From Bradyrhizobium guangdongense (lineage in GTDB: Bacteria; Pseudomonadota; Alphaproteobacteria; Rhizobiales; Xanthobacteraceae): a stretch of 64,000 bases of DNA. The notes below the pieces were generated by a model, which saw only the letters and a list, made by a program, of their open reading frames with translations, searched no databases and was not told where the DNA came from. The position numbers and the translations under genes were made by a program. Each line of letters begins with the position of its first letter. Positions within the stretch are counted from its first letter, which is position 1. The stretch is taken from NCBI RefSeq assembly GCF_004114975.1, contig NZ_CP030051.1, positions 2,418,001 to 2,482,000 of the forward strand, read 5' to 3'. Shown piece by piece: positions 2 to 9,198 of this stretch.

Positions 2-3000
2 GTTTCGCTGGTCGGCGGCCAGGTTATTTTTACGCCCGACAAGGACTATATCGGAGGCGCCTCATTCAATTATACGGTCACTGATGACGGAACAACTGAC
101 GGCCGCAGCGATCCCCAGAGCAGTTCCGGAATTGTGAGCATTAACGTCCTATCGACGAAAAATCTAACCTACCTGTTGAAGGTGGACGGGATTCAGGGCG
201 ATTCGACAGTGAAGGGCTATGAGGGTGCCTTCACGGTTGACGAGTTCACGTTCAACGAGCTGACCAAGCTGGCCGCGGGGGCGGGCGGTGGTGGTGCAGG
301 CAAGGCGCAGTTCGATCCGTTGACGGTCGATATCGGCAGGCTCTCGGCCGGGCTGGTAAAGCTCCTGGCAGATGCAGCGACAGGCAGGCACATCCCCACG
401 ATTGAGCTTGTGGGTCTGAAGCCGCAGGGCGATGCGCTGCAGAAGCTCTATGACCTGAAGCTGACCGACGCGACGGTGGCAGGCTTTGCCAGCGACGGCG
501 GCCACGACACGGCGATCGCTTTCGACTTCAACAGAGGCAGCGAGACGATCGCAGGTCAGAATGCCGACGGTTCGCTCAATGCGGGTCAGACCTTCAACTT
601 TACGGCCGGCCCGCTCGCGCCCGTCGACCACGACATCCTGACGGCGTTTGCGCATGATCACAGCGGGCCTCAGCTAACCTACCTGTTGAAGGTGGACGGG
701 ATCCAGGGCGATTCGACAGTGAAGGGCTATGAGGGTGCCTTCACGGTTGACGAGTTCACGTTCAACGAGCTGACCAAGCTGGCCGCGGGGGCGGGCGGTG
801 GTGGTGCAGGCAAGGCGCAGTTCGATCCGTTGACGGTCGATATCGGCAAGCTCTCGGCCGGGCTGGTAAAGCTCCTGGCAGATGCAGCGACAGGCAGGCA
901 CATCCCCACGATTGAGCTTGTGGGTCTGAAGCCGCAGGGCGATGCGCTGCAGAAGCTCTATGACCTGAAGCTGACCGACGCGACGGTGGCAGGCTTTGCC
1001 AGCGACGGCGGCCACGACACGGCGATCGCTTTCGACTTCAACAGAGGCAGCGAGACGATCGCAGCTCAGAATGCCGACGGTTCGCTCAATGCGGGTCAGA
1101 CCTTCAACTTTACGGCCGGCCCGCTCGCACCCGTCGACCACAACATCCTGACGGCGTTTGCGCATGATCACAGCGGGCCTCAGCTAACCTACCTGTTGAA
1201 GGTGGACGGGATCCAGGGCGATTCGACAGTGAAGGGCTATGAGGGTGCCTTCACGGTTGACGAGTTCACGTTCAACGAGCTGACCAAGCTGGCCGCGGGG
1301 TCGGGCGCTGGTGCAGGCAAGGCGCAGTTCGATCCGTTGACGGTCGATATCGGCAGGCTCTCGGCCGGGCTGGTAAAGCTCCTGGCAGATGCAGCGACAG
1401 GCAGGCACATCCCCACGATTGAGCTTGTGGGTCTGAAGCCGCAGGGCGATGCGCTGCAGAAGCTCTATGACCTGAAGCTGACCGACGCGACGGTGGCAGG
1501 CTTTGCCAGCGACGGAGGCCACGACACGGCGATCGCTTTCGACTTCAACAGAGGCAGCGAGACGATCGCAGCTCAGAATGCCGATGGTTCGCTCAAGGCG
1601 GGTCAGACCTTCAACTTTACGGCCGGCCCGCTCGCACCCGTCGACCACAACATCCTGACGGCGTTTGCGCATGATCACAGCGGGCCTCAGCTAACCTACC
1701 TGTTGAAGGTGGACGGGATCCAGGGCGATTCGACAGTGAAGGGCTATGAGGGTGCCTTCACAGTTGACGAGTTCACGTTCAACGAGCTGACCAAGCTGGC
1801 CGCGGGGGCGGGCGGTGGTGGTGCAGGCAAGGCGCAGTTCGATCCGTTGACGGTCGATATCGGCAAGCTCTCGGCCGGGCTGGTAAAGCTCCTGGCAGAT
1901 GCAGCGACAGGCAGGCACATCCCCACGATTGAGCTTGTGGGTCTGAAGCCACAGGGCGATGCGCTGCAGAAGCTCTATGACCTGAAGCTGACCGACGCGA
2001 CGGTGGCAGGCTTTGCCAGCGACGGCGGCCACGACACGGCGATCGCTTTCGACTTCAACAGAGGCAGCGAGACGATCGCAGGTCAGAATGCCGACGGTTC
2101 GCTCAATGCGGGTCAGACCTTCAACTTTACGGCCGGCCCGCTCGCGCCCGTCGACCACGACATCCTGACGGCGTTTGCGCATGATCACAGCGGGCCTCAG
2201 CTAACCTACCTGTTGAAGGTGGACGGGATCCAGGGCGATTCGACAGTGAAGGGCTATGAGGGTGCCTTCACAGTTGACGAGTTCACGTTCAACGAGCTGA
2301 CCAAGCTGGCCGCGGGGGCGGGCGGTGGTGGTGCAGGCAAGGCGCAGTTCGATCCGTTGACGGTCGATATCGGCAAGCTCTCGGCCGGGCTGGTAAAGCT
2401 CCTGGCAGATGCAGCGACAGGCAGGCACATCCCCACGATTGAGCTTGTGGGTCTGAAGCCACAGGGCGATGCGCTGCAGAAGCTCTATGACCTGAAGCTG
2501 ACCGACGCGACGGTGGCAGGCTTTGCCAGCGACGGCGGCCACGACACGGCGATCGCTTTCGACTTCAACAGAGGCAGCGAGACGATCGCAGCTCAGAATG
2601 CCGACGGTTCGCTCAATGCGGGTCAGACCTTCAACTTTACGGCCGGCCCGCTCGCACCCGTCGACCACAACATCCTGACGGCGTTTGCGCATGATCACAG
2701 CGGGCCTCAGCTAACCTACCTGTTGAAGGTGGACGGGATCCAGGGCGATTCGACAGTGAAGGGCTATGAGGGTGCCTTCACGGTTGACGAGTTCACGTTC
2801 AACGAGCTGACCAAGCTGGCCGCGGGGTCGGGCGCTGGTGCAGGCAAGGCGCAGTTCGATCCGTTGACGGTCGATATCGGCAGGCTCTCGGCCGGGCTGG
2901 TAAAGCTCCTGGCAGATGCAGCGACAGGCAGGCACATCCCCACGATTGAGCTTGTGGGTCTGAAGCCGCAGGGCGATGCGCTGCAGAAGCTCTATGACCT

Positions 3001-3226
3001 GAAGCTGACCGACGCGACGGTGGCAGGCTTTGCCAGCGACGGAGGCCACGACACGGCGATCGCTTTCGACTTCAACAGAGGCAGCGAGACGATCGCAGCT
3101 CAGAATGCCGATGGTTCGCTCAAGGCGGGTCAGACCTTCAACTTTACGGCCGGCCCGCTCGCACCCGTCGACCACAACATCCTGACGGCGTTTGCGCACC
3201 TGCATCAGGATCTATTCCTAGTCTGA
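2..3226 (+). CDS. C-terminal part of a giant cadherin/Ig-like repeat protein with six tandem Hcp-like domains (5' partial)
   Basis: The frame is open from base 2, so the start lies outside the window. The first ~50 residues look like the end of a cadherin/Ig-like tandem domain (FTPDKDYIGGASFNYTVTDD). Six ~170-residue repeats follow. Each resembles the T6SS tube protein Hcp: a VDGIQGDSTVKGYEG start, a glycine loop followed by GK, SAGLVKLLADAATGRHIP, then an LYDLKLTDATVAGFAS strand. Free Hcp is a ~160-residue ring-forming protein; six in one chain, behind an adhesin-like domain and with no T6SS genes nearby, is unusual. The last repeat switches to a tail ending DLFLV, an acidic residue plus four hydrophobic ones, as in several type I secretion substrates. 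I infer a type I-secreted surface protein; the function of the Hcp-like units is unknown. Confidence 0.85.
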   Translation, partial: VSLVGGQVIFTPDKDYIGGASFNYTVTDDGTTDGRSDPQSSSGIVSINVLSTKNLTYLLKVDGIQGDSTVKGYEGAFTVDEFTFNELTKLAAGAGGGGAGKAQFDPLTVDIGRLSAGLVKLLADAATGRHIPTIELVGLKPQGDALQKLYDLKLTDATVAGFASDGGHDTAIAFDFNRGSETIAGQNADGSLNAGQTFNFTAGPLAPVDHDILTAFAHDHSGPQLTYLLKVDGIQGDSTVKGYEGAFTVDEFTFNELTKLAAGAGGGGAGKAQFDPLTVDIGKLSAGLVKLLADAATGRHIPTIELVGLKPQGDALQKLYDLKLTDATVAGFASDGGHDTAIAFDFNRGSETIAAQNADGSLNAGQTFNFTAGPLAPVDHNILTAFAHDHSGPQLTYLLKVDGIQGDSTVKGYEGAFTVDEFTFNELTKLAAGSGAGAGKAQFDPLTVDIGRLSAGLVKLLADAATGRHIPTIELVGLKPQGDALQKLYDLKLTDATVAGFASDGGHDTAIAFDFNRGSETIAAQNADGSLKAGQTFNFTAGPLAPVDHNILTAFAHDHSGPQLTYLLKVDGIQGDSTVKGYEGAFTVDEFTFNELTKLAAGAGGGGAGKAQFDPLTVDIGKLSAGLVKLLADAATGRHIPTIELVGLKPQGDALQKLYDLKLTDATVAGFASDGGHDTAIAFDFNRGSETIAGQNADGSLNAGQTFNFTAGPLAPVDHDILTAFAHDHSGPQLTYLLKVDGIQGDSTVKGYEGAFTVDEFTFNELTKLAAGAGGGGAGKAQFDPLTVDIGKLSAGLVKLLADAATGRHIPTIELVGLKPQGDALQKLYDLKLTDATVAGFASDGGHDTAIAFDFNRGSETIAAQNADGSLNAGQTFNFTAGPLAPVDHNILTAFAHDHSGPQLTYLLKVDGIQGDSTVKGYEGAFTVDEFTFNELTKLAAGSGAGAGKAQFDPLTVDIGRLSAGLVKLLADAATGRHIPTIELVGLKPQGDALQKLYDLKLTDATVAGFASDGGHDTAIAFDFNRGSETIAAQNADGSLKAGQTFNFTAGPLAPVDHNILTAFAHLHQDLFLV
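164..3217 (+). repeat. Six tandem ~510-bp coding repeats arranged as a duplicated three-unit block
   Basis: Units start at 164, 674, 1184, 1691, 2201 and 2711, with lengths 510, 510, 507, 510, 510 and 507 bp. Units 3 and 6 share a shortened glycine loop (GSGAGAGK) and GSLKAGQ. Units 1 and 4 share AGQNADG and DHDIL. Units 2 and 5 share AAQNADG and DHNIL with the long loop. The pattern ABC-ABC shows that a 1527-bp three-unit block was duplicated after the units diverged. Copies differ at very few bases, including synonymous sites, so the expansion or homogenisation is recent. An open antisense frame also runs through each unit and is taken as a composition shadow. Confidence 0.95.
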
Positions 3227-4290: not shown

Positions 4291-4386
4291 AACCCTACAT
4301 TGATCCAGGGGCGGCGAATCCGAGGTCGGAACCGGGGTGCGCCATTCGTCTTAAGTTCGTGTGTCAAGACTCTGGAGTTCCGCGTA

Positions 4387-5313
4387 ATGGCCCCCCACGC
4401 CAACTGGAAAGGGTTTCTTCGTCTTTCCCTCGTGACCTGCCCGGTGGCGCTCTTTCCAGCGACGTCGGAGAGTGAGAAGATCGCTTTCAACCAATTGAAC
4501 CGGTCAACGGGCCGACGGGTCAAATACCTGAAAGTCGACGCCGATACCGGGGAGGGGGTCTCTAGCGAAGATATCGTCAAGGGCTACGAGTTCGAGAAGG
4601 GCCAATACATTGAGGTGTCGAAAGCGGAGCTTGAAGAGATCGCGCTGGAGTCCACGCGTACCATCGAGATCGATGAGTTCGTCGATCGTTCCGACATAGA
4701 CCCGAGATACCTGATCAGGCCCTATTACTTGCGTCCAGACGGAAAGGTGGGCCACGAGGCCTTCGCCGTCATCCGCGAGACAATCCGTGAGATGGAGAAG
4801 GTTGCGATCGGCCGGGTCGTGCTCACGAACCGGGAGCATATCATTGCGCTGGAGCCGCTGGACAAAGGGCTTGTCGGCACACTGCTCCGCTACCCCTATG
4901 AGGTGCGCAGCGAGCAGGAATATTTCGATGAAATCCAGGGCGTTAAGGTCACAAAAGACATGCTGGATCTCGCCAAGCACATCGTGAACCAAAAGGGCGG
5001 GCGGTTCGATCCGGAGAAGTTTGAGGATCACTACGAGAGCGCGCTAGTTGACCTCATCAATCAGAAGCGCGCAGGCAAGACCATCGGCCCGAAGGAGCCG
5101 CCCAAGGGCGAAAACGTCGTCGACCTCATGGAAGCCCTACGGCGCAGCGTCGGGCAAGAGGCAACGCCGGCCAGGGCGGCCAAGCCAGCCAAGAAGTCAA
5201 AGAAGGCGGGGCCCAGCCAGAAGGAGATGTTGATGCCGATCACCGGCAAGAAGCAGGCAAAGGAGTTGGCTGCCAAGAAGCCGGCTGCTGGAACCCGGAG
5301 CAAGTCAGCGTGA
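4387..5313 (+). CDS. ku: Ku protein, DNA end-binding factor of non-homologous end joining
   Basis: A 308-residue homodimeric Ku, which binds broken DNA ends and recruits an ATP-dependent ligase. The start at 4387 gives MAPHANWKGFLRLSLVTCPV, the usual N-terminus of rhizobial Ku; the longer frame from 4300 adds 29 residues of no family character. The Ku core (YLKVDADTGEGV, DIDPRYLIRPYYLRPDGKVG, RVVLTNREHIIALEP) spans about residues 10-250. A Lys/Ala-rich tail (about 265-308) follows, as in Ku proteins with basic C-termini. The downstream gene overlaps its stop by 4 bp, so translation is probably coupled. No intact ligase lies beside it; a ligase fragment sits near 12.9 kb. Confidence 0.93.
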   Translation: MAPHANWKGFLRLSLVTCPVALFPATSESEKIAFNQLNRSTGRRVKYLKVDADTGEGVSSEDIVKGYEFEKGQYIEVSKAELEEIALESTRTIEIDEFVDRSDIDPRYLIRPYYLRPDGKVGHEAFAVIRETIREMEKVAIGRVVLTNREHIIALEPLDKGLVGTLLRYPYEVRSEQEYFDEIQGVKVTKDMLDLAKHIVNQKGGRFDPEKFEDHYESALVDLINQKRAGKTIGPKEPPKGENVVDLMEALRRSVGQEATPARAAKPAKKSKKAGPSQKEMLMPITGKKQAKELAAKKPAAGTRSKSA

Positions 5314-8886: not shown

Positions 8887-9198
8887 ATGCGCGAACCGGG
8901 CTCCGGACATGCACGGTCTCGTCCTGCCAAACTCGGTCCTCACCATCAGGCGTATCATGCGAGCGGGTCGCAAGTGATTTGGGTGTGCTTGGTGACTGCA
9001 CCGAGGTATCTACCACGCGAGAGTGCCTGCCTTTCAACGCTGGACCTTTTCCAAGGGGTAAGCACCTCCGCAGGCTCCACGAAAGTGGCAGCCGTCCCCG
9101 AGCCGTCCACATGGGCCATGATGATGCTCGGCTTCTGCGGCCTTGGCTTCATGGCGTATCGGCGCAAACAGATCGGCAGCGCGCTCGCAGTCACCTGA
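8887..9198 (+). pseudogene. Orphan PEP-CTERM sorting tail
   Basis: The last ~35 codons read [20 protein letters not shown] followed by MAYRRKQ. This is a textbook PEP-CTERM signal: PEP motif, hydrophobic segment, basic cluster, recognised by exosortase. The upstream part of the frame (from 8887) shows no secreted-protein character, no signal peptide and poor coding texture. This looks like the 3' end of a PEP-CTERM protein whose body has been lost. No exosortase gene is in the window. Confidence 0.55.

What the first reader, a model, noticed from the sequence alone, without database searches (positions are those of the whole stretch)
164..3217. Six fused Hcp-like domains in an adhesin-type protein, with an ABC-ABC duplication
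T6SS Hcp normally works as free ring-forming subunits. Here six domains are joined in one chain behind a cadherin/Ig-like region, with no T6SS genes in the window. Shared variants show that a three-unit block was duplicated as a whole. Fused rings could stack into a tube or pad on the surface.
Basis: partly seen in the sequence, partly recalled or inferred. Interest (0 to 1): 0.75.

Follow-up and report, generated by a model that had tools for sequence, protein, structure and literature searches.

The report
Single-chain six-domain Hcp rings
A bacterium related to Bradyrhizobium that lacks a type VI secretion system carries a giant protein with two sets of six tandem copies of that system's ring-forming tube protein; in relatives the copy number keeps returning to six, which suggests that each set folds into one ring made from a single chain.

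Summary
The full protein (2337 residues) has six divergent Hcp-like units, two cadherin-like domains, then the six Hcp units of the window. The C array is ABC-ABC in DNA. The own genome has no TssC or VgrG match. Of 73 proteins counted, 49 have six units, the window protein has 6+6, none has more than six per array, and 23 have fewer, 15 of them cut or frameshifted by my reading. The six-unit arrays form 29 clusters at 70% identity and reach six as 6x1, 3x(AB) or 2x(ABC). An AlphaFold2 model (pLDDT 80.5, pTM 0.74) matches Hcp unit by unit, and neighbouring units match phage tail-tube chains such as T5 pb6, which makes a pseudo-hexameric ring from two tube domains per chain. Best reading: each array is a single-chain Hcp-type ring, here two rings joined by cadherin domains, outside any T6SS and probably exported by type I secretion. 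The count is well supported; ring closure and export are inferred; the role is unknown.

The parts
2..3226 (+). 3' part of one open gene (2337 aa in full, L007:8213-15226 = G000:C1:2414213-2421226); the first 3.8 kb, with the N-terminal six-unit array and most of the two cadherin-like domains, lies outside the window
2..163 (+). end of the second cadherin-like domain and linker to the C array
   Evidence: Pfam Cadherin_5, best stretch at residues 1207-1293
164..673 (+). Hcp-like unit C1 (type A)
674..1183 (+). Hcp-like unit C2 (type B)
1184..1690 (+). Hcp-like unit C3 (type C, 3-nt deletion)
1691..2200 (+). Hcp-like unit C4 (type A)
2201..2710 (+). Hcp-like unit C5 (type B)
2711..3223 (+). Hcp-like unit C6 (type C) with its own C-terminal tail
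3188..3223 (+). last 12 residues AFAHLHQDLFLV: acidic residue followed by hydrophobic residues, compatible with a type I secretion C-terminal signal (motif recalled)

Best explanation
Each array of six Hcp-like units folds into one six-membered ring made from a single chain, the intramolecular version of the Hcp hexamer. The window protein carries two such rings, one of each subtype, joined by two cadherin-like domains. It works outside any T6SS. It is most likely exported as one unfolded chain by type I secretion and folds outside the cell; covalent linkage would let a six-part ring form there without six separate subunits having to meet at low concentration. Its role is probably that of an extracellular or surface ring-shaped binding module. 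Shown here: unit homology, counts, repeated build-up to six, no match to two T6SS markers, purifying selection on the two units tested. Inferred: ring closure, type I export, extracellular location, function.
Confidence: 0.72

Rival explanations
1. The units form a linear string, like stalk repeats of fibrillar adhesins, and six is a historical accident or loose length preference.
For: Cadherin-like and Ig-like neighbours are typical of such proteins; some arrays have 2, 4 or 5 units.
Against: No array above six among 73 proteins; six reached through three block structures; neighbouring modelled units have the geometry of tube-ring neighbours; cadherin-like domain counts vary in the same proteins.
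Confidence: 0.13
2. Arrays form rings but do not close on themselves: chains pair or interleave with other chains, or the N and C arrays of one protein make a mixed or twelve-membered ring.
For: Two- and four-unit relatives exist and would need partners, as pb6 with two domains per chain does.
Against: Free-standing six-unit chains of about 1040 aa (P0012-P0027, P0031) and proteins with an N-type array only (P0006, P0007) exist.
Confidence: 0.1
3. The protein serves a T6SS as a special tube segment or evolved effector.
For: Pfam family; source names such as 'type VI protein secretion system component Hcp'.
Against: No TssC and no VgrG match in the own genome; TssC absent in all five array genomes tested.
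Confidence: 0.02
4. The copy number is an assembly artefact.
For: Units are 98-99% identical in the window; the draft of B. zhengyangense shows 2+2.
Against: Of 19 proteins in which no two units exceed 70% identity, and which an assembler should not confuse, 13 have exactly six; the others have 2 (three), 4 (two, one with a frameshift-like tail) and 5 (one, which starts inside a unit).
Confidence: 0.03

Closest known systems
T6SS tube protein Hcp (TssD, PF05638)
   Same: Same fold and full-domain sequence homology; six copies make the ring.
   Different: Six copies in one chain, twice per protein; no TssC or VgrG match in the genome; attached to cadherin-like domains; relatives carry RTX, Ig-like or Hint domains.
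Tail tube protein pb6 of phage T5 and similar tail proteins
   Same: Fusion of the hexamerisation domain within one chain, giving a pseudo-hexameric ring (PMC5717097, passages); neighbouring modelled units superpose on it.
   Different: pb6 has two such domains per chain and three chains per ring; here six domains in one chain. A bacterial protein, not a virion part; no relative in phage records.
VCBS/cadherin/RTX-type exoproteins and fibrillar adhesins exported by type I secretion
   Same: Cadherin-like domains and C-terminal motif; RTX repeats in relatives.
   Different: No RTX match in the window protein; the main body is Hcp units with a nearly fixed count instead of a variable stalk.
Extended or 'evolved' Hcp effectors (recalled)
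   Same: Hcp fused to further domains.
   Different: As recalled, those carry one Hcp domain and belong to a T6SS.

Membership tests
T6SS Hcp | Hcp domain homology and fold | tested here: met
   (fold modelled for the C array only)
T6SS Hcp | works with a T6SS (sheath TssC, spike VgrG in the genome) | tested here: not met
   no match in own genome; no TssC in five array genomes; other T6SS genes not sought
T6SS Hcp | separate single-domain subunit of about 160-190 aa | tested here: not met
   2337 aa with 12 units; other hits in the genome searches lie mostly in open frames under 300 aa
T6SS Hcp | six-membered ring | tested here: inconclusive
   count of six and modelled geometry of neighbours; closure not seen
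Type I secreted exoprotein | RTX or similar repeats and uncleaved C-terminal signal, no N-terminal signal peptide | tested here: inconclusive
   C-terminal motif present; no RTX family in the Pfam list; N-terminus not examined with a signal predictor
Type I secreted exoprotein | T1SS ATPase in the genome | tested here: met
   TIGR01842, 736 bits, over the cut-off; 4.6 Mb from the gene
Fibrillar adhesin | adhesion and surface display | not testable with these tools
   domains only

The most novel reading that the evidence does not exclude
A family of T6SS-independent, probably type I secreted proteins in which the Hcp/tail-tube ring has become a single covalent chain, with copy number repeatedly driven to six by ring closure through 6x1, 3x2 and 2x3 duplications; the window protein is a two-ring member. 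This would complete the series 1x6 (Hcp), 2x3 (T5 pb6), 6x1.
Probability: 0.68. Interest if true: 0.85.

Novelty: new variant of a known kind. Interest (0 to 1): 0.77.

Why it matters
It would be a natural single-chain six-part ring of the phage-tube fold, free of any injection machine, and a rare case in which a quaternary symmetry can be read from a gene's repeat number. It makes testable why a ring would be linked covalently (assembly after secretion at low concentration) and offers a ready-made monomeric Hcp ring for structural work. It also warns that a protein named 'T6SS Hcp' in a database need not belong to a T6SS.

Tried and rejected
First AlphaFold2 job with only three sequences gave a useless model and was not interpreted. 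The genome-contig scan with nine arrays confirmed one locus, B. zhengyangense. No array relative in plasmid or phage records. A genomic partner was sought among ten neighbouring frames (four in G212, three in G224, one in G004, one on each side in the window genome); apart from periplasmic binding proteins beside the arrays of G212 and G224 nothing recurs, and other neighbours were not scanned. The promoter and terminator scan gave no more sites than shuffles. VIA-align rows that span units 1 to 6 were considered as proof of closure and rejected as too weak. Paper searches for tandem or fused Hcp, single-chain rings and Hcp with type I secretion gave, judged from the listings only, no description of such proteins; the library holds open-access papers only. 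PMC5717097 and PMC8718954 were seen as passages.

Full report
Observation. The six repeats exist as described and all six match Pfam T6SS_HCP above its cut-off. The reading frame is open at the window's left end; in the own genome (G000, two contigs) the gene runs from L007:8213 to 15226, 2337 residues. Pfam T6SS_HCP matches the C array only (six places); the N units are Hcp-like by profile comparison: against 26 single-domain Hcps taken from genomes, N units align over the domain with 98.3% probability, C units with 99.6%, N with C 98.9%. A single N unit against PDB sequences gave only E = 0.024 to an Hcp, a C unit E = 3e-07. The genus is that of Bradyrhizobium zhengyangense: G406, listed as same genus, holds the contig of that named record.

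ABC-ABC. Leaving out the last 40 columns, units 3 and 6 of the C array are identical, 1/4 differ at 4 and 2/5 at 2 columns, neighbours at 3-14; 11 of 15 listed variable columns follow the pattern, four do not. In the N array, units 1-5 differ from each other at 3-13 of 561 positions; unit 6 has a divergent end (49-56 differences).

No T6SS. The own genome has no match to TssC (PF05943) or to the VgrG/GPD family PF05954; both searches ring in the E. coli control genome. In a chosen set of nine genomes, TssC is absent in all five with arrays (G000, G212, G406, G224, G004) and present in the four others, which have only short Hcp hits (G169, G363, G194, G114).

Count in relatives. Two searches with one unit of the full protein as query gave eleven distinct proteins including the window's own: nine have exactly six units, the window's 6+6, and one named 'partial' has one. 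A third search with a profile of six arrays gave 59 hits, 57 of them new. In all 68 proteins: six units in 47, twelve in 1, five in 5, four in 7, three in 5, two in 2, one in 1. Adding five open frames from genome stretches (L043 6, L044 6, L045 2, L046 4, L047 2+2) makes 73: 49 with six, one with 6+6, 23 with fewer, none with more than six per array. Of the 23, I judge 15 as cut or frameshifted from their ends (P0011, P0029, P0030, P0037, P0039, P0040, P0045, P0046, P0051, P0053, P0057, P0058, P0062, P0063, P0068) and 8 as intact at both ends (P0032 and P0033 with 5; P0065 and L046 with 4; P0066, P0067 and L045 with 2; L047 with 2+2). This judgement is mine, by eye. Among the 19 proteins in which no two units are more than 70% identical, so that an assembler should not confuse them, 13 have six, the others 2 (three), 4 (two, P0065 and P0068) and 5 (P0037, which starts inside a unit). 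L043 and P0016 are probably the same gene held twice.

Bias. The query is itself six-unit, only the 7995 candidates sharing most words were scored, and the hits span 543-1794 aa; arrays of 7-10 units would fit. Genome searches without a length limit (149 genomes of the family; 265 of the genus; 397 of the order; 385 of the class; 398 of the phylum; samples overlap, and in the larger ones at most 9-10 candidate stretches per genome were scored for G000) showed arrays only in G000, G212, G224 and G406 of the genus and in G004 of the family. Two of these genomes have one or two contigs and give 6 and 6+6; the drafts give 4 (G224, about 60 contigs), 2+2 (G406, about 90), and 6 and 2 (G004, about 680). 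Other listed hits lie mostly in open frames under 300 aa, as expected for ordinary Hcp; longer ones with one match are 332 (G863), 411 (G114) and 413 aa (G353). G406 copies are 99.4-99.6% identical in DNA, so collapse is plausible but not shown.

How six is reached. The 51 six-unit arrays fall into 43, 29, 16 and 5 clusters at 90, 70, 50 and 40% mean unit identity; the largest cluster at 50% holds 20. Six arrays (P0008, P0009, P0010, P0050, P0052, P0060) alternate ABABAB by similarity against separation; in the tree, both triads are clades in 5 of 5 tested (P0010 was not in the tree; support 0.73-0.997). The units of 20 of 31 arrays in the tree are monophyletic, support 0.63-1.0; the other 11 are not. 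So many arrays look rebuilt or homogenised and still have six. Between the window and B. zhengyangense, dS is 0.68 (N1) and 0.65 (C1), with dN/dS 0.06 and 0.11, whereas units inside each array are nearly identical: the likely reading is homogenisation after the species split, with the reservation that the B. zhengyangense draft may be collapsed. The cadherin linker evolves faster (dN 0.217, dS saturated). As a control, cadherin-like domains found by a profile seeded from the window protein number 1-6 in 12 of the 50 proteins with six or 6+6 units, and none were found in 38.

Export and role. Nine relatives are listed with RTX repeats (PF00353: P0004, P0009, P0010, P0037, P0050, P0060, P0061, P0066, P0067), and 31 of 50 six-unit proteins end in an acidic residue followed by hydrophobic ones against 8.9% (5679 of 63618) of internal windows; 19 of 50 do not. 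That this resembles a type I secretion signal is recalled. PrtD-type ATPases (TIGR01842) pass the cut-off in 4 of 5 array genomes, not in G004, and in none of 14 control genomes; none of the ten neighbouring frames scanned is a T1SS gene. The role remains open: I favour an extracellular ring-shaped binding module, with low confidence in that last step.

Noticed in passing
L043:6371-7618, L043:11202-12428 and L046:3261-4502: In G212 (C-type array) and G224 (N-type array) the arrays lie beside related periplasmic binding protein genes (Peripla_BP_6; those of G212 are 57 and 60% identical to that of G224), although the arrays belong to different subtypes.
   Followed up: partly
L045:11395-14967 (G004): A protein with two Hcp-like units followed by glycine/aspartate-rich repeats (by eye), in a genome that also has a six-unit array; two units would need three chains for a ring, as in T5 pb6.
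   Followed up: partly
window 8887-9198: Small open frame with [29 protein letters not shown] near its end, which looks like a PEP-CTERM sorting tail (recalled motif).
   Followed up: no
window 4300-5310: Ku-type DNA end-binding protein (PF02735).
   Followed up: no
P0008: ABABAB array in one protein with a Hint_2 domain, so the arrays are combined with a self-processing type domain too.
   Followed up: no
L027:12118-13767: Transposase-like gene downstream of the B. zhengyangense ortholog (looks like IS66 by eye); the neighbourhood differs from the window's.
   Followed up: no
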